Positions 56,601 to 62,849 of a stretch of DNA of 64,000 nt are shown here, piece by piece; positions within the stretch are counted from its first letter, which is position 1; the number at the start of each line of letters is the position of its first letter. The stretch spans positions 153,937 through 217,936 of the forward strand of contig JAHEGU010000001.1 of assembly GCA_024644945.1 (NCBI GenBank). Reading direction: 5' to 3'. The notes below the pieces were generated by a model. The model did no database searches and was not told where the DNA came from. It saw nothing but the letters and a program-made list of their open reading frames with translations. A program made the translations under genes and the position numbers. The stretch is from Gammaproteobacteria bacterium. Its GTDB lineage: Bacteria; Pseudomonadota; Gammaproteobacteria; Arenicellales; Poriferihabitantaceae.

Positions 56601-56850
56601 TTTGCGGGCGGTCATTCTGACTTCTCTGACTACGGTGGCGGGCTTGACACCCCTTTTATTTGAAACCTCCTTACAGGCTCGTTTCCTGATCCCAATGGCG
56701 ACAAGCCTTGCATTTGGCCTGGCCTTTGCGACGCTGTTGGTATTGTTTCTGGTGCCTTCCCTGCTGTTGATATATGAAAACGCAGCGCTCCGGTTAAGTG
56801 GCGACAAGCAGGCCACAATGGCTGGCAAAGTTAATCGAGAAACAGCGTAA
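53689..56850 (+). CDS. RND family efflux transporter permease
   Basis: A 1053-residue HAE-type RND pump, AcrB-like. Twelve membrane helices in the 1+5+1+5 pattern, two periplasmic porter regions of about 300 residues. Helix-4 proton relay is ALGIIVDDAIVVGEEAM (two Asp), helix-10/11 has VVNDSIILVVFYKDL. N-terminal FSNHPVAANLLMVMMLLAG fits. The frame is open from GTG 53668, but ATG at 53689 is preferred. Substrates cannot be told. It is convergent with the nitroreductase, overlapping by 20 bases. Confidence 0.92.
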   Translation: MSTEANPMTSGSSRGGMIGMFSNHPVAANLLMVMMLLAGVWAVRQLNTQFFPSFEIDYASVQVVWSGASAEDVEELITVSLEQALRDVDFVKEMTSTSAEGVSSVTLEFEEGTDMSLAVDQVKQRIDQVQNLPDGAETPLVSQVVRYEGVARVLVTGDNDISELRPLVNRFEQELLDRGIAKIFINGLPEEQIAIEIPSRNLRELGLSLDDVGRRVAAWSRDVPVGIIGRGEISRQLRFQERRETGLGFETIPVVAAEQGRRITLGDIASIERKPKDSQVSIFYRGKPAVELRLNRTENSDGLEAARILHRWLEDTRPTLPPGIEIVPFDERWEYLQGRISLLIKNGVGGLALVLVILYLFLQGRVAFWVAVGIPVSFMASLAVLYLIGGSINMISLFGLIMALGIIVDDAIVVGEEAMSHYAAGDDRQNASENAARRMMGPVFSSSLTTIAAFFPLLLIGGIIGSILKAIPVVVICVILASLVECFLILPGHLTHSFRRMGDRPVGSFRRRLDNGFNRFRDGVFRPAVSLAIEFRWTTIAVALTLLMLSFGWFIAGRIGFQFFPTAEADRLYANVGFVSGTSAEKVRDYMSKVEQALYEVEQELGPPLINLVITRLGTEEGESRATGDHFGGVRVELVDPDLRTVRNRDIIRAWREKLPAIPGRERLSIVEPRAGPPGSDIDLRIVGNDIRQVKLVAEEIAAVLQEIAGVTGIEDDAPYGREQMVLQLTPTAEVLGLSIEKVSGQLRAAYDGYVVQELSDGYDEIEVRLSLPESERNTVAGLDELDIVLPNGNTEPIGNLATISLDRGFETIRHSDGNLAVTIRGSVDPSVNNANDIRAEIEQDLLPDLASRYGVTFSFEGRQADQRETLGDMRLGLLLALSMIYLVLSWVFGSYGWPLIVMFIIPFSLVGAIWGHVVMGLDLTILSLFGIFGLSGIVVNDSIILVVFYKDLRARGMGANEAVIEAACQRLRAVILTSLTTVAGLTPLLFETSLQARFLIPMATSLAFGLAFATLLVLFLVPSLLLIYENAALRLSGDKQATMAGKVNRETA

Positions 56851-57535
56851 ATTGCTCGGCACCAACGCGTTCGGTTACTAATGTGTTGACTACCGCATCC
56901 GGGTCCGCATACCCGATGGCCATACCACATACTACAATTTCGTCGTCACTGATGGGTAGCACTGATCGAATTACTTTGTGATAGTCCGCCCACGCCGCTT
57001 GAGGGCAGGTATGCAATCCCGCTTCCCTGGCCAGCAACATTATGTTTTGTAAAAACATGCCGTAGTCCAGCCAACTTCCAGTGGCTAGCTGGCGATGAAT
57101 TGTGAATATCATTCCTACCGGTGCACCAAAGAATAGAAAATTTCTCCGATGCTGATTATGTGTTTTCTGGCGATCACCTTTTTCAATTTCGAGCAATCCA
57201 TATAGATCCCACCCCACTTTGCGTCTGCGAGATATATATGGCTCGAACCACTTCTCCGGGTAATAACGCTTCTCGCTGTTATATTGCCCCCGTTGGTTGT
57301 CAAACGCCTCACATACGGCCTCGCTTAAAGCTTGTCTGGTATCGCCTGTTGTAACGTACAACTGCCAGGGTTGCATATTGGTCCCGCTAGGTGCGCGGGC
57401 AGCCTTATCCAGAATTTTTTGGAGGACTTCGTTCGAGACTGGCGTGGATAAGAAAGCACGCAATGATCGACGTGAGATCACAGCCTCGGTTACCGAATCG
57501 GCAACGGAATAATTAATAATATTCGGACTTTTCAA
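56831..57535 (-). CDS. Nitroreductase family protein
   Basis: A 234-residue FMN protein. SRRSLRAFLSTPVSNEVLQK and AARAPSGTNMQPWQLYVTTG form the FMN phosphate site. GMFLQNIMLLAREAGLHTCP and VVCGMAIGYADPDAVVN are C-terminal family parts. It reduces nitro compounds or quinones with NAD(P)H. The middle includes RYYPEKWFEPYISRRRKVGW, usual in this subgroup. Its end overlaps the RND pump end (convergent). Confidence 0.9.
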   Translation of the reverse strand: MKSPNIINYSVADSVTEAVISRRSLRAFLSTPVSNEVLQKILDKAARAPSGTNMQPWQLYVTTGDTRQALSEAVCEAFDNQRGQYNSEKRYYPEKWFEPYISRRRKVGWDLYGLLEIEKGDRQKTHNQHRRNFLFFGAPVGMIFTIHRQLATGSWLDYGMFLQNIMLLAREAGLHTCPQAAWADYHKVIRSVLPISDDEIVVCGMAIGYADPDAVVNTLVTERVGAEQFTLFLD

Positions 57536-57991
57536 TATGAAAAATTGATCTGACTAAGCCTGGTGAGCAATGTGGAGTTAAAGTGGTGCAAGTGCAACTT
57601 ACAATAACTTATAGCAGGGAGGTAAAAACTCATCTAATAAGTCGTTTCGATGGACATAGGCCTTAACAGTAGAGGACTCTTTTCTCCTCTTATTGCACTT
57701 TTCTGAACCAGATCCTGAGTATTTGATTAAAGGTTTTATCGAAGCTACTAGAACCCGCTCTAACTGCCGCTGATGTTGGACTTCCGGGGTCAGGACCGGG
57801 AGAATATGAGAGAAACACAATCGACCTTTTAGATGCTGGCGCATTTGATAGACGGGTTTGCATAAGATAGCATGTGCTTTATGCTACTCGTTGGTGGGGA
57901 ATCAGATCGTGCTTGCTCGTTCTAATTGGATCGAGCTCCTGACTATTCTACCATCGCTCGAGACACCTGATTTCATTTCGAGGTAAATCAA
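57536..57991. other. 456-base non-coding stretch
   Basis: Divergent region between the nitroreductase and the dehydrogenase at 57992. An 81-codon frame on the minus strand (57599-57844) has no recognisable features. AGGTAAATCAA precedes the dehydrogenase. No repeat or terminator is evident. Confidence 0.5.
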
Positions 57992-58912
57992 ATGTCACAA
58001 TTCTCCGACGTCTCGGTAATTGGTCTTGGCGCCATGGGATGGGGCGCTGCAATATCGCTGCTTAGGGACGGATTCAGTGTCTATGGCGTTGATATCCGTC
58101 AAGAAGTCCTGGAAAGGTTTAGCGCTGAGAAGGGTAATCCATGTCAATCCCCCGCGGAGGCCGCCAAACTAGCGTCAGTAGTCATGGTTTTCGTGGTCAC
58201 CGACAAACAGGTCGAACAGGTGTTGTTTGGACAAGACGGCGCTGTTGCCGCCGCTGAGCCAGGCACATTATTTATCAACTCCAGCACAATACAGCCCAGT
58301 TCAGCGGTCGAAATTGGAAAGCGACTGGAATCCGCGGGTATGCGTGTAATTGATGCGCCAGTATCAGGCGGCGCTGCCAGGGCTCTGCGGGGCGAGGTGA
58401 CGGTCATGGCATCTGGCAGTGGTGAGGCATTCAAAATTGCTGGCCCGATATTCGACGCAATTTCAGCGAAAGTTTTTAGGCTTGGCGCAGAGGTAGGCCA
58501 GGGTTCTAGAATTAAAATGATTAATCAACTCCTGTCAGACGTACATATTGCCGCTACCGCGGAGGCCATGACCCTGGCTTCAAACATTGGCGTTAATCTT
58601 GAAACCATGTACGAGGTGATCACTCAATCCACAGGAAATTCATGGATGTTTGAAGATCGCGGTGCGCATATTGTCAATGGTGACTATGCGCCAAGATCGC
58701 CAATAGATATCATTGTAAAGGATCTAGGTATTGTTAGTTTTGAAGCGGAGTCGGCGGGGGCCGCAGTACCGTTGACTAATGCGGCACTTGCATTGTTCTC
58801 GGAAGCGCGTGCTGAAGGATATGGCAGGGAAGATGGTTGCGCGGTGGCAAAATTACTAGGCAGAAAATCTGACACGGCCTTGCCCGGTGTAAAGGATCGA
58901 TCGCAAGAATAA
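57992..58912 (+). CDS. 3-hydroxyisobutyrate dehydrogenase family enzyme
   Basis: A 306-residue beta-hydroxyacid dehydrogenase. NAD fold: VSVIGLGAMGWGAAISLLRDGFSVYGVD (here GLGAMGWGAA), substrate-site VIDAPVSGGAARALRGEVTVMASG, catalytic Lys in GSRIKMINQLLSDVH, and NSWMFEDRG. The closest relatives by eye are the L-threonate dehydrogenase (LtnD) and tartronate semialdehyde reductase-like groups; substrate unknown. Single gene, rightward; the next starts 94 bases later. Confidence 0.88.
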   Translation: MSQFSDVSVIGLGAMGWGAAISLLRDGFSVYGVDIRQEVLERFSAEKGNPCQSPAEAAKLASVVMVFVVTDKQVEQVLFGQDGAVAAAEPGTLFINSSTIQPSSAVEIGKRLESAGMRVIDAPVSGGAARALRGEVTVMASGSGEAFKIAGPIFDAISAKVFRLGAEVGQGSRIKMINQLLSDVHIAATAEAMTLASNIGVNLETMYEVITQSTGNSWMFEDRGAHIVNGDYAPRSPIDIIVKDLGIVSFEAESAGAAVPLTNAALALFSEARAEGYGREDGCAVAKLLGRKSDTALPGVKDRSQE

Positions 58913-59006: not shown

Positions 59007-60398
59007 ATGATTAGACTGGGGAAATCAAAATTCAAACGAATCTTGCGACAAGGGCTGACCTGGGCTTTTGCCCTGATCGTCTCTGTGACAAGTGCTTCTG
59101 GCTGGGCTGAGTCAACGATCAACCACCTATCTTTTGACAATCAGCATCAGGACCAGGGAATCTGGTTTGAGTTTAAGCAACAGGATCGGAGGGACTGGTT
59201 GACTCAGTTTAGCGAGCCGAAAAAAGAGCTCGCGCGCTCTGCAATGCAATTGGATCAAGAGTTTCCAGACTACACAATTCATTGGGGTATGGCGACTTCC
59301 GAGCTGCAGGATATGAGTCATCTAGGAGTCTCTTTTTCGGATATTTCCATATATGGTTTCAGCGGAAACGGTGATACCAACAGCACCATCTTTCATCCCT
59401 TTGATGACGTTGACAAATACCATTTTCACGGTGGACTCAGACAAAATTACGATTATTCGGGATTTCGTTTTGACTACCGCTTAAGTCGATTTAACAAATT
59501 TACACTTACCCAGGCGACGATAAATGCGCAGGGGCTCAATAAACGAAGCGCCTATGAGTTGGGCTGGCAGGGAGAACACATCCAGCTGTCGATGATGCAG
59601 ATCGATGAAGACAAGTCCTATGCAGGAAGGGTGTATTCCATTGGCATGACATTGGGGCAGCACCATGTTTCGTTGAACCGTCTGAGTGCAGACAACAGGG
59701 CCGGGTATACCGGGATTTCATTTCTATCTCGCACCCGCAGTGGTAAAGATTGGGGTATCCATTTCGAGCGCCGAACGAATCCGCTTTATCAAGACGCCAA
59801 CGAAGATCGAATCACTTTTACCCTTGGGTTTCGTCTCAATACTGTGCCAAGGTTCCATGCCGATGAACCTGATGCGGATGACGAGGCGCAGACACAGCAG
59901 AAAAAAAAGACTAATGCAATGCTTGTGGGAGCAGGCGTTGTCGGGGCTGCGATTGCTCTAAGTTCCGGTGGTGGGGGTGGGAGTGACAATCGTGCCAGAT
60001 TTGGTTCGCAGCAGCAGGCGGCCAGGCAAGTGTTGAATGATGTCAATCCAACTTCGATTGCACAAAACAGGGAATGGGGTGGATACATCTATCGAAATGC
60101 AGATGGCAGCTTTTCAGCAACCAATGCGATACAGGGAACCGCCACCAGTGTTTTGCTTCCATCACCATCCAATGCTGCGCCCAGTGGTGCAGTCTCCACG
60201 GCCAGCTATCATACGCACGCGGCGTTCGATCCCCGCTACGATAATGAAAACTTTTCGCCCCAGGACATATTGTCAGATACACTGTTTGGAATCGACGGAT
60301 ATCTGGCAACCCCGAAAGGGCAGTTTAAGTACCACAATGTAGGCAACGATCGTGTCATTATCCTGGGGGGTCCCGGTACCCTTGCTACGGGCGGATGA
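59007..60398 (+). CDS. Exported beta-rich protein with C-terminal DUF4329 domain
   Basis: A 463-residue protein, counted from ATG 59007 (GTG at 58992 is possible). Signal peptide to about residue 35 (LTWAFALIVSVTSASGWAES). Residues 40-285 are beta-rich with alternating hydrophobics, resembling an outer-membrane barrel. Then an acidic/lysine linker, a glycine-alanine hydrophobic stretch (304-318), poly-glycine, and a DUF4329 domain (332-463). That domain carries Glu356 (REWGGYIYRN), His402-x-His404 (YHTHAAFDPRYDNENFSPQD), Ser417 and Asp420, a JAB/MPN-like metal pattern. DUF4329 occurs in polymorphic toxins; activity is unproven. The stop overlaps the next start (ATGA). Confidence 0.75.
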   Translation: MIRLGKSKFKRILRQGLTWAFALIVSVTSASGWAESTINHLSFDNQHQDQGIWFEFKQQDRRDWLTQFSEPKKELARSAMQLDQEFPDYTIHWGMATSELQDMSHLGVSFSDISIYGFSGNGDTNSTIFHPFDDVDKYHFHGGLRQNYDYSGFRFDYRLSRFNKFTLTQATINAQGLNKRSAYELGWQGEHIQLSMMQIDEDKSYAGRVYSIGMTLGQHHVSLNRLSADNRAGYTGISFLSRTRSGKDWGIHFERRTNPLYQDANEDRITFTLGFRLNTVPRFHADEPDADDEAQTQQKKKTNAMLVGAGVVGAAIALSSGGGGGSDNRARFGSQQQAARQVLNDVNPTSIAQNREWGGYIYRNADGSFSATNAIQGTATSVLLPSPSNAAPSGAVSTASYHTHAAFDPRYDNENFSPQDILSDTLFGIDGYLATPKGQFKYHNVGNDRVIILGGPGTLATGG

Positions 60399-60859
60399 AA
60401 CAGCCCGCGCTGACAACACTATTAATTTTACTGCTGATGCCGATGAACAGCCAGGGAGACGAAACCTACCGTGCAGCCAAACAGTATGCACTCGAGAGAG
60501 ATGGCTGTGGGCTCGATCATGGATATAATTGTGTACAACAGCAGGAGGATGATTTTATCGGCATCGAGTCCGATCAGCGAATGGTGCCGGGAAATTATCT
60601 TAAGGCCTGGCAGCTGGCAGTTGCAGACTTTTTAGAGATTGAAGATATAGAGCCGACACAGAAAGATCTCAAACACTATAAGTTCGGCTTCACCGAATCA
60701 GGCGATCACTATATCGTGCATTTTCAGGCATTGTTGCTGCCAGAGATTACCGAGGGTGAGGTTACGGCAACAATCCGGGGCACCTATGGTTTGACAATGC
60801 GCTACTGGATCAATAAACGCAGCATGGTGATCGATAAACGGCTTTTTTATAAGACCTGA
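60395..60859 (+). CDS. Small exported protein coupled to the DUF4329 gene
   Basis: A 154-residue protein with signal peptide (LTTLLILLLMPMNSQGDE). The mature part has CGLDHGYNC (two cysteines, likely a disulphide), LKAWQLAVADFLEIEDIEP, YKFGFTESGDHYIVHFQALL and GTYGLTMRYWINKRSMVI. I do not recognise it. The ATG overlaps the stop of the DUF4329 gene, so both are made together. It may be an immunity or accessory protein. Convergent with nagZ (4 bases). Confidence 0.72.
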   Translation: MKQPALTTLLILLLMPMNSQGDETYRAAKQYALERDGCGLDHGYNCVQQQEDDFIGIESDQRMVPGNYLKAWQLAVADFLEIEDIEPTQKDLKHYKFGFTESGDHYIVHFQALLLPEITEGEVTATIRGTYGLTMRYWINKRSMVIDKRLFYKT

Positions 60860-60863
60860 CTAC

Positions 60864-61898
60864 TTATACCGCTTTCCCATCTTCGACAAGGGGTAACAAA
60901 GAGCTCATAAGAGTTTCGAGCTCTTCTGGCGCTACATCACACGCACCTCCGACCATTGCATCAAGGCGACCTGGAGCAGGAGCAAATAGCCGACCGATAT
61001 GTTCGGAGGTTTGGCGCGCCGCTTCAGGTTCATTGCAGATTAACACTATATCGCAGCCCGCGCGCAATGCACGTTCAGCCCGTTCAGCGTGGCTGACTCC
61101 TCCCTCGGCACCCTTCATTGTTAGGTCGTCGCTAAAAATTAACCCTTCAAACCCAAGGTGATCACGTAAAACCTTTTTGAGCCAGAATCTGGAATAGGTT
61201 GGCAGTTCTTCCTGAATTGCAGAATATTGTACGTGAGCAGTCATGACCGCTCCGAGTAAAGGTGCCAGATTGCGGTAGGGTACTAGATCGCAGGACATCA
61301 GCATGTCGAGATCCCGGTAATCAACCGGAAGTTGAAGATGGGAATCGGTCAACACGCCGCCATGGCCGGGAAAGTGCTTTCCGGTTGCCTGCATCCCAGC
61401 GCTGTTCATACCATTGACATAGTGATACCCCAACTCCGCGATTATCAATGGGTCATTGTGAAATCCACGGTCACCGATCACTTGACTGTGCAAATCGGCA
61501 AGATCTAAAACCGGTGCGAAGCTGAAATCTACCCCCACCTGGCGAAGCTCCGCGGCCATCAGACATCCGGCATCAAAAGAAAGTCGGGTCGCTTGTTCAG
61601 GTTGCGAGTCATAAAGCTGGCCAATAGCAAAAAGGGGTGGCAGTTCAAAAAACCCTTGGCGAAACCGCTGTACCCGCCCGCCTTCCTGATCCACGGCCAC
61701 CAATAGTTCGGGATTGCGAAGAGACTTTATTTGAGAGATCAACGCACTAACCTGTTCGCGAGACTCGAAATTTCGATCGAACAGGATCACCGCACCTACA
61801 GCAGGTTGAATAAGAAACTCTCGCTCCTCGTTGGACAAGGACACTCCTGAAAGGTCCGCCATCAGCGGACCACGCGGAAGCTGGGCTACGTCACTCAT
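60864..61898 (-). CDS. nagZ: Beta-N-acetylhexosaminidase NagZ
   Basis: A 344-residue GH3 enzyme without signal peptide that removes GlcNAc from anhydro-muropeptides in the cytosol during peptidoglycan recycling. Motifs: LVAVDQEGGRVQRFR, GKHFPGHGGVLTDSH (Lys174, His175, His179), and the nucleophile in LIFSDDLTMKGA (Asp257 or 258). Length matches E. coli NagZ (341). It follows the YkuD gene with 8 bases overlap, in a leftward operon with the phosphatase and spoT. Confidence 0.96.
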   Translation of the reverse strand: MSDVAQLPRGPLMADLSGVSLSNEEREFLIQPAVGAVILFDRNFESREQVSALISQIKSLRNPELLVAVDQEGGRVQRFRQGFFELPPLFAIGQLYDSQPEQATRLSFDAGCLMAAELRQVGVDFSFAPVLDLADLHSQVIGDRGFHNDPLIIAELGYHYVNGMNSAGMQATGKHFPGHGGVLTDSHLQLPVDYRDLDMLMSCDLVPYRNLAPLLGAVMTAHVQYSAIQEELPTYSRFWLKKVLRDHLGFEGLIFSDDLTMKGAEGGVSHAERAERALRAGCDIVLICNEPEAARQTSEHIGRLFAPAPGRLDAMVGGACDVAPEELETLMSSLLPLVEDGKAV

Positions 61899-62379
61899 GA
61901 ATCATTACCGGTGTTCCAGTTATTACTAAGTCAAACAGCTCGATCACATCGGGGTTTCGCATTCGCACACAACCGTGAGATCCTGGTTGGCCCATTTTTA
62001 CATCATTCGGTGCGCCGTGAATATAGACGTATCTGCGCATAGTGTCGACGTCGCCAAGTCGGTTAAACCCGGGTTCGCAACCACTGAGCCAGAGAATTCT
62101 GGTGAGAATCCAGTCGCGGTCAGGATGCTTTTGCCGCAGTTCAGGGTGATAAATTTCGCCAGTCGCACGGCGTCCGACAAAAATTGTATTAGGTTCAGCG
62201 CCTGCACCAATACGGGCACGTATAGTATGTCGGCCTCTGGGAGTACAGTAACTACCGTTTTTCTCGCCAGCCCCATTGTCCGCAGTGGATACGGGGTATC
62301 GAAGTTGCTGACCGTCAATCCCGGTAAACAGTAATGTTTGCGAATCGATATAGATATCAATCCTTGGTAGATCGGTCAC
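61891..62379 (-). CDS. YkuD-domain protein without signal peptide (ElsL-like)
   Basis: A 162-residue YkuD (L,D-transpeptidase) protein. His121 in YIHGAPND and QPGSHGCVRMRNPDVIELF (His135, Cys137) form the catalytic site. There is no signal peptide; residues 1-20 are PRIDIYIDSQTLLFTG, a beta-strand start. So it should be cytosolic. The Acinetobacter baumannii enzyme ElsL is a cytosolic YkuD L,D-carboxypeptidase in peptidoglycan recycling. The overlap with nagZ (8 bases) and lmw phosphatase (4 bases) supports that role here. Confidence 0.85.
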   Translation of the reverse strand: MTDLPRIDIYIDSQTLLFTGIDGQQLRYPVSTADNGAGEKNGSYCTPRGRHTIRARIGAGAEPNTIFVGRRATGEIYHPELRQKHPDRDWILTRILWLSGCEPGFNRLGDVDTMRRYVYIHGAPNDVKMGQPGSHGCVRMRNPDVIELFDLVITGTPVMIHE

Positions 62380-62849
62380 TGCTTTAAGATGTGTGTTATC
62401 AAGCCTTCACTTGCTTCTTCAATCAGATCCAGAACCTGGTCAAAGCCCCGGTCGCCGCCATAGTAAGGGTCAGGTACTTCGTCAAGGCCAATAAACTCGG
62501 TGAATTCAAGCAACAGACGAACCTTATGGGCTTGTGCTTGGCCTGCAAGCGCCTCTAACTCACGCCGGTTGCCGTGGTCCATTGCGATTATGTAGTCGAA
62601 GCGCTGTATATCCGCATCACTAACCTGGCGCGCTCGGAGACTACTAATATCGATACCTCGCGCAGAAGCCGCAAGCTGAGCCCTTTTGTCTGGCGGGCTG
62701 CCGATATGCCAGTTGCCCGTTCCTGCTGAATCTACCTCGAATTGCTTGAGAAGATTCCGCTTGGAAAGAATTTGGCGACATACACCTTCGGCAGTTGGTG
62801 AACGACAGATATTGCCGAGACAGACAAATAGTATGGAGTGCGTGGACAT
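62376..62849 (-). CDS. Low-molecular-weight protein-tyrosine phosphatase
   Basis: A 157-residue LMW-PTP. P-loop FVCLGNICRSPTAEGVC (Cys10-x5-Arg16), and the acid loop EVPDPYYGGDRGF with Asp-Pro-Tyr-Tyr-Gly. It dephosphorylates tyrosine or arginine phosphate in proteins. Often linked to a tyrosine kinase; none is near. Its stop overlaps the YkuD start; spoT ends 17 bases upstream of its start. Confidence 0.93.
   Translation of the reverse strand: MSTHSILFVCLGNICRSPTAEGVCRQILSKRNLLKQFEVDSAGTGNWHIGSPPDKRAQLAASARGIDISSLRARQVSDADIQRFDYIIAMDHGNRRELEALAGQAQAHKVRLLLEFTEFIGLDEVPDPYYGGDRGFDQVLDLIEEASEGLITHILKQ

What the first reader, a model, noticed from the sequence alone, without database searches (positions are those of the whole stretch)
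59007..60859. DUF4329 protein with a beta-rich N-terminal part, coupled to a small exported partner
Seen: a signal peptide, about 245 beta-rich residues, a glycine-alanine hydrophobic stretch and poly-Gly, then a DUF4329 domain with Glu356, His402-x-His404, Ser417 and Asp420. The stop overlaps the start of a 154-residue exported protein of unknown family. Known: DUF4329 occurs at the ends of polymorphic toxins. The Glu/HxH/S-x2-D pattern resembles JAB/MPN zinc peptidases, though the HxH-to-Ser spacing (12) is longer than usual. Inference: a surface-displayed enzyme or toxin with its immunity or accessory protein. I know of no described system of this make-up.
Basis: partly seen in the sequence, partly recalled or inferred. 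Interest (0 to 1): 0.6.

Follow-up and report, generated by a model that had tools for sequence, protein, structure and literature searches.

The report
Outer-membrane barrel carrying a JAMM-like domain
A marine-type gammaproteobacterium encodes a protein that is half outer-membrane pore and half zinc-hydrolase-like domain, co-translated with a small exported partner; it looks like a conserved cell-envelope enzyme, not the toxin that its domain name suggests.

Summary
The 463-aa protein (59007-60398) has a signal peptide, a beta-rich N-terminal part, a Gly/Ala hydrophobic stretch and a DUF4329 domain (E 1.5e-31). Its stop overlaps (ATGA) the start of a 154-aa exported partner. New here: the N-terminal part is modelled as an outer-membrane beta-barrel of about 14 strands. 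Glu356, His402, His404, Ser417 and Asp420 are invariant in 49 homologues and sit where a JAMM/MPN+ zinc site would. The partner contains a cystatin-like fold with a conserved Cys pair. The barrel+DUF4329 protein occurs in 54 of 109 genomes of its order but only 4 of about 273 other sampled Gammaproteobacteria. Of 29 partner genes in the order, 28 lie beside it; one is on another contig. The reverse fails: about half the carriers lack the partner, partner state changed at least 7 times, and the JAMM part stays under strong purifying selection (dN/dS about 0.05) without it. No Rhs or secretion context was seen. That argues against toxin-immunity. Best reading: an outer-membrane-anchored JAMM-like hydrolase, catalytic domain probably periplasmic, with an optional cystatin-fold modulator. 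Surface display by an inverse-autotransporter route is not excluded. No enzyme activity is shown.

The parts
59007..60398 (+). Main gene: 463-aa outer-membrane barrel + DUF4329/JAMM-like protein
59007..59114 (+). Sec signal peptide, residues 1-36 (KSKFKR n-region, hydrophobic core, GWA cleavage-like site)
   Evidence: read from the sequence; helix 6-28 in the model
59157..59831 (+). Beta-barrel domain, residues 51-275, 14 predicted strands; long loops all on the inferred outer side (60-74, 124-146, 258-265)
   Evidence: AF2; Foldseek porins/OmpG E about 1e-4 to 1e-3; VIA Z 12.6-15.2 to BamA/OmpF/OmpC
59832..59915 (+). Disordered linker, residues 276-303, ending QKKKTN
   Evidence: pLDDT about 40
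59916..59966 (+). Gly/Ala-rich hydrophobic segment, residues 304-320 (AMLVGAGVVGAAIALSS), then poly-Gly; a similar segment in 47 of 49 homologues
60015..60347 (+). DUF4329 (PF14220) JAMM-like domain, residues 337-447
60072..60074 (+). Glu356, in N-R-E-x-G-G, just before a predicted strand
   Evidence: invariant in 49
60210..60218 (+). His402-Thr-His404, at the end of predicted strand 396-403
   Evidence: both His invariant in 49
60255..60266 (+). Ser417-x-x-Asp420, at the start of predicted helix 418-427
   Evidence: invariant in 49
60395..60398 (+). ATGA stop/start overlap between main gene and partner; the same 4-base overlap is seen in L041, L048, L049, L055, L064, L069, L084
   Evidence: coordinates
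60395..60859 (+). Partner gene: 154-aa exported protein
60506..60532 (+). Partner Cys38...Cys46, inferred disulfide: both present or both absent in 30 of 30 sequences
60584..60856 (+). Partner cystatin-like domain, residues 64-154 (helix then antiparallel sheet)
   Evidence: AF2 pLDDT 90; VIA Z 8.9 designed cystatin fold, 7.4 YpeB, 7.4 cystatin D

Best explanation
The gene makes an outer-membrane-anchored JAMM-like (DUF4329/Tox-JAB-2) hydrolase. The signal peptide exports it, the roughly 14-strand barrel inserts in the outer membrane, and the barrel's last strand leaves the chain in the periplasm. After a flexible linker and a Gly/Ala-rich helix, the JAMM-like domain is held near the inner face of the outer membrane, in an OmpA-like layout with an enzyme in place of the peptidoglycan-binding domain. 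There Glu356/His402/His404/Asp420 would bind a zinc ion and water and Ser417 would support the site, cleaving an amide or isopeptide bond in an envelope substrate (unknown: peptidoglycan peptide or outer-membrane/periplasmic protein). The co-translated partner is a disulfide-bonded periplasmic protein with a cystatin-like fold that most likely binds and restrains, stabilises or directs the enzyme; it is optional. Shown here: exported gene pair, conserved architecture, conserved motif, purifying selection, partner adjacency. Predicted: barrel, JAMM-like fold, cystatin-like fold. Inferred: zinc, catalysis, periplasmic side, binding of the partner.
For: DUF4329 E 1.5e-31. Five motif residues invariant in 49 homologues, placed on predicted elements as in JAMM proteins: Glu before the first strand, HxH at a strand end, SxxD at a helix start. 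Zhang et al. 2012 class DUF4329 as Tox-JAB-2 with E, H[ST]H, S, D (PMC3482391). Barrel: AF2 pLDDT mostly 90+ in the strands, porin/OmpG/invasin-domain hits, Z 12.6-15.2; long loops fall on alternate turns. Barrel occurs with DUF4329 in essentially all hits in the order. dN/dS 0.09-0.28 for the whole protein, 0.05-0.10 for the JAMM part, also without partner. All but one of 29 partner genes lie beside a main gene. Cys pair present or absent together. Partner cystatin-like.
Against: No sequence-profile link to RadC or Prok-JAB could be shown or to PDB JAMM sequences, and the JAMM part was not searched alone against solved folds. HxH-to-Ser spacing is 12, not the usual 7. No enzyme activity of DUF4329 is published in what I could read; Zhang et al. 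suggest a nuclease and other papers call it an RNase. The Gly/Ala segment could be a membrane or pore-spanning helix. Strand alternation is only weakly above shuffles (404 of 10,000 reach it). Physical contact with the partner was not modelled.
Confidence: 0.5

Rival explanations
1. Inverse-autotransporter-like display: the N-terminal barrel exports its own C-terminal JAMM-like domain, with the Gly/Ala helix lying in the pore, so that the enzyme acts outside the cell.
For: Order of parts (signal, barrel, short linker, small helix, C-terminal domain) is that of intimin/invasin (PMC3467248). The Gly/Ala helix has about the length of a barrel pore and is conserved in 47 of 49; invasin and intimin barrels appear among the Foldseek hits. 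Flank charges differ across the helix (mean +1.0 before, -1.3 after).
Against: The barrel is predicted with about 14 strands, not 12. No LysM or Ig-like domains. The helix is hydrophobic, unlike most pore linkers. An exported co-translated partner would more naturally meet the domain in the periplasm. Barrel hits are generic.
Confidence: 0.25
2. Toxin-immunity pair: DUF4329 is a toxin tip and the 154-aa protein its periplasmic immunity protein.
For: DUF4329 is found at Rhs C-termini (PMC3482391); cystatin/NTF2-like folds occur in immunity proteins, and Tox-JAB-2 of E. coli is paired with an NTF2-fold immunity protein.
Against: Enzyme kept without partner in about half of carrier genomes, with at least 7 changes of partner state on the tree; intact motif and JAMM dN/dS about 0.05 in those lineages; no delivery module, no cassette array, no tip polymorphism; not on phages, one distant DUF4329 match on plasmids.
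Confidence: 0.08
3. The barrel is the main player (a channel or receptor), and the JAMM-like domain processes or gates what comes through, or is only a structural plug; it need not be a peptidase.
For: A conserved F-H-G-G loop at residues 140-143 between strands 5 and 6 (F 0.83, H 0.89, G 0.85) could be a pore constriction or ligand site; the barrel is always present with the domain in the order.
Against: The barrel is far less conserved (mean 0.35) than the JAMM domain (0.67), so most constraint is on the enzyme-like part. The invariant metal-site pattern suggests catalysis.
Confidence: 0.12

Closest known systems
Tox-JAB-2 / DUF4329 (PF14220) of polymorphic toxins (Zhang et al. 2012, PMC3482391)
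   Same: Same domain family, same E / H[ST]H / S / D pattern, C-terminal position, neighbouring small gene
   Different: Fused to an outer-membrane barrel instead of Rhs repeats; not polymorphic; kept without its neighbour; neighbour has no Pfam family and is exported
JAMM/MPN+ zinc peptidases (RadC-like, Prok-JAB)
   Same: E, HxH, SxxD pattern and predicted order of secondary-structure elements
   Different: 12 instead of 7 residues between HxH and Ser; exported; no significant profile match
OmpA-type proteins
   Same: N-terminal outer-membrane barrel, flexible hinge, C-terminal domain expected in the periplasm (general knowledge)
   Different: About 14 strands rather than 8; enzyme-like domain instead of a peptidoglycan-binding one
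Inverse autotransporters (intimin/invasin, T5e; PMC3467248)
   Same: N-terminal barrel, then linker, then C-terminal domain
   Different: Strand number, no Ig-like passenger, hydrophobic Gly/Ala helix; surface location untested
SleB-YpeB pair of Bacillus (PMC13393411, PMC6660665)
   Same: An exported lytic enzyme with a partner holding a PepSY/cystatin-like fold; YpeB is among the closest folds to this partner
   Different: Enzyme unrelated; no evidence of descent

Membership tests
DUF4329 (PF14220) | Profile score above the curated cut-off | tested here: met
   109.2 bits against 28.6; 49 of 49 homologues match
JAMM/MPN+ metallopeptidase | Glu, HxH, Ser and Asp metal-site residues conserved | tested here: met
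   E356, H402, H404, S417, D420 invariant in 49 sequences
JAMM/MPN+ metallopeptidase | H-x-H-x7-S-x2-D spacing | tested here: not met
   12 residues between H404 and S417; typical of the DUF4329 branch, so membership is claimed only as 'JAMM-like'
JAMM/MPN+ metallopeptidase | JAMM fold | tested here: inconclusive
   Element order fits; viral JAB hit weak, prob 0.80; PDB lists were filled by the barrel; profiles not significant
JAMM/MPN+ metallopeptidase | Zinc binding and peptidase activity | not testable with these tools
   needs purified protein
Outer-membrane beta-barrel protein | Signal peptide and closed transmembrane beta-barrel | tested here: met
   Model with 14 strands, porin/OmpG/OmpF/BamA matches; closure judged from fold matches, coordinates not inspected
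Polymorphic toxin with immunity gene | Variable toxin tip on a delivery module (Rhs, CdiA, T6SS, etc.) | tested here: not met
   Barrel and JAMM domain always together; no delivery module seen in the neighbourhood clusters
Polymorphic toxin with immunity gene | Obligatory linked immunity gene | tested here: not met
   Partner absent in 28 of 54 carrier genomes; at least 7 changes
Inverse autotransporter (T5e) | C-terminal passenger on the cell surface | not testable with these tools
   needs protease shaving or surface labelling
Inverse autotransporter (T5e) | 12-strand intimin-type barrel | tested here: inconclusive
   14 strands predicted; 4e1t and 4e1s among lower Foldseek hits
Cystatin-like fold (partner) | Long helix packed on an antiparallel sheet | tested here: met
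   VIA Z 8.9 over 71 residues, rmsd 2.8; Foldseek gave no E below 1e-3, so fold level only, no kinship

The most novel reading that the evidence does not exclude
A new envelope system: a JAMM-type zinc enzyme built into an outer-membrane barrel, either facing the periplasm or self-displayed through a 14-strand inverse autotransporter, controlled by a dedicated cystatin-fold periplasmic inhibitor. It would be the first non-toxin role for the Tox-JAB-2 branch and a JAMM enzyme working outside the cytoplasm.
Probability: 0.25. Interest if true: 0.75.

Novelty: new variant of a known kind. Interest (0 to 1): 0.5.

Why it matters
DUF4329 is treated as a toxin domain, and in 2012 all previously identified prokaryotic JAB proteins were described as intracellular (PMC3482391). 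Here the domain is a strongly constrained, mostly syntenic part of an outer-membrane protein in about half the genomes of a gammaproteobacterial order. That offers a non-toxin system in which the unknown chemistry of Tox-JAB-2 (peptidase or nuclease) can be tested: an exported JAMM domain anchored at the outer membrane makes a cytoplasmic nucleic-acid substrate unlikely.

Tried and rejected
Toxin-immunity (see rivals). Mobile origin: no relative in viral contigs, none in phages and one distant DUF4329 match in plasmids; partner none in plasmids. Profile links of DUF4329 to RadC and Prok-JAB gave no significance, although the best local match with Prok-JAB puts ASYHTH on AIYHSH. Sequence search of solved structures found nothing meaningful for the main protein, the partner or DUF4329 alone. 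Partner as a known immunity family: no Pfam family shared by members. Gly/Ala segment as an inner-membrane stop-transfer: considered and thought unlikely, because charges before it are on average positive and after it negative, and the linker is too short to reach from outer to inner membrane; not disproved. Columns specific to partner-bearing lineages are few and follow one clade, so no interface was inferred. No JAMM structure appeared in the PDB fold lists, which the barrel filled.

Full report
What is in the sequence. The main gene runs from 59007 to 60398 and codes for 463 residues; the partner runs from 60395 to 60859 and codes for 154. The stop of the first and the start of the second share ATGA. 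Pfam gives one match, DUF4329, at residues 337-447 with E 1.5e-31; NCBIfam gives none. The partner has no family in either library, nor is any Pfam family shared among its 30 homologues.

Relatives. Among 60 relatives, 26 genomes carry the main protein and 16 the partner. In the whole order (109 genomes held) 54 carry the main protein and 26 the partner, 29 partner copies in all. I compared the coordinates: 28 copies lie directly beside a main gene on the same strand. The last (G347) lies on another contig; its main gene appears to end at a contig edge (compare L045, a 6,111-base contig), so a break in the assembly is likely. Outside the order the family is rare: 5 of 274 genomes sampled in the class, the window's own included. 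Named loci are gammaproteobacterial MAGs labelled Arenicellales, Acidiferrobacterales, Thioglobus and similar, plus Spiribacter. More distant DUF4329 matches are Rhs C-termini (L093, L095, L096, L099, L100) and short stand-alone secreted proteins (L097, L098).

N-terminal part. AlphaFold2 on 49 homologues gives mean pLDDT 81, pTM 0.73, with 14 strands between residues 51 and 275, mostly above 90 from residue 81 on. Foldseek finds Rhodopseudomonas porin (E about 1e-4), OmpG, OmpU and, lower, the invasin and intimin barrels; VIA-align gives Z 12.6-15.2 to BamA, OmpF and OmpC. The three long loops all follow odd-numbered strands, so with a periplasmic N-terminus they are outside and the chain after strand 14 is in the periplasm. 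This is inference from general barrel rules; I could not inspect model coordinates. Hydrophobic alternation in the strands is only slightly better than shuffles. In the order, the barrel profile finds no convincing protein without DUF4329 (one hit at E 0.005 apart), so the fusion is fixed.

C-terminal part. The predicted order helix 335-353, strand 357-363, strand 369-371, strand 396-403, helix 418-427, strands 430-434, 440-444, 449-454 places Glu356 before the first strand, His402/His404 at a strand end and Ser417/Asp420 at a helix start, as in JAMM/MPN+ proteins (general knowledge). All five are invariant in 49 barrel homologues and in the Rhs-type and stand-alone relatives aligned. Zhang et al. 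describe DUF4329 as Tox-JAB-2 with E, H[ST]H, S, D, and suggest that toxin JABs may be nucleases (PMC3482391); later papers label DUF4329 an RNase without showing data in the passages read (PMC7216683, PMC10469887). I could not confirm kinship to RadC or Prok-JAB by profile.

Linker. Forty-seven of 49 homologues have a hydrophobic Gly/Ala-rich stretch of about 17 residues before the JAMM-like domain, mean hydropathy about 2, usually followed by or ending in Ser-Ser-Gly. Its flanks are on average positive before and negative after. It may pack in the pore, in the membrane or with itself; the data do not decide.

Partner. Its model is confident (pLDDT 90). Residues 64-154 have a cystatin-like fold: Z 8.9 to a designed cystatin fold, 7.4 to YpeB of Bacillus and to human cystatin D. 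Foldseek alone found nothing below E 1e-3, so this is a fold statement only. Cys38 and Cys46 are both present in 27 and both absent in 3 of 30 sequences, which fits a disulfide and an oxidising compartment.

Is it a toxin pair? On the protein tree, partner presence needs at least 7 changes. In the clade of L059-L083 the main gene sits between the same neighbours as in L060, which has the partner, so loss is likely there. In these partner-less lineages dN/dS is 0.09-0.14 for the whole protein and 0.05-0.07 for the JAMM-like part; in partner-bearing pairs JAMM is about 0.10 and partner 0.11-0.14. No Rhs, CDI or secretion genes recur nearby; the partner is the only widely shared neighbour. A self-toxic enzyme should not survive repeated loss of its immunity gene. 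I therefore give the toxin reading 0.08.

Most likely working. An outer-membrane-anchored JAMM-like hydrolase acting on an envelope substrate, with an optional cystatin-fold modulator. The SleB-YpeB pair, where a PepSY/cystatin-like partner stabilises or holds back an exported lytic enzyme (PMC6660665, PMC13393411), shows that such an arrangement exists, without implying descent. Substrate, side of the membrane and contact with the partner remain to be tested.

Noticed in passing
L084:2-2711 and L091:1-2116: Operon main - partner - second barrel+DUF4329 copy, joined by ATGA-type overlaps; the second copy keeps the E, HxH, S and D residues.
   Followed up: partly
window 60864-62849 (-): Genes that read like NagZ, an L,D-transpeptidase and a low-molecular-weight phosphatase follow the pair; the same block lies near the pair in another family (L067, L092), possibly a peptidoglycan link or just conserved order.
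   Followed up: partly
L097:5935-6468, L098:5950-6483: Rhodobacterales carry a stand-alone, signal-peptide-bearing DUF4329 protein of about 178 aa without a barrel: another non-Rhs exported form.
   Followed up: no
window 59424-59435 (residues 140-143): A Phe-His-Gly-Gly loop in the barrel is among the best conserved parts of the otherwise variable N-terminal domain; it may be a pore or ligand loop.
   Followed up: no
L093, L095, L096, L099, L100: Rhs proteins from Acidobacteria, Pseudoduganella, Kiritimatiellae and Symbiothrix end in the same DUF4329 domain.
   Followed up: partly
window 56831-58912: In the window two genes lie between the RND-type transporter and the pair; in L039 and L040 the transporter is directly upstream of the pair.
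   Followed up: no
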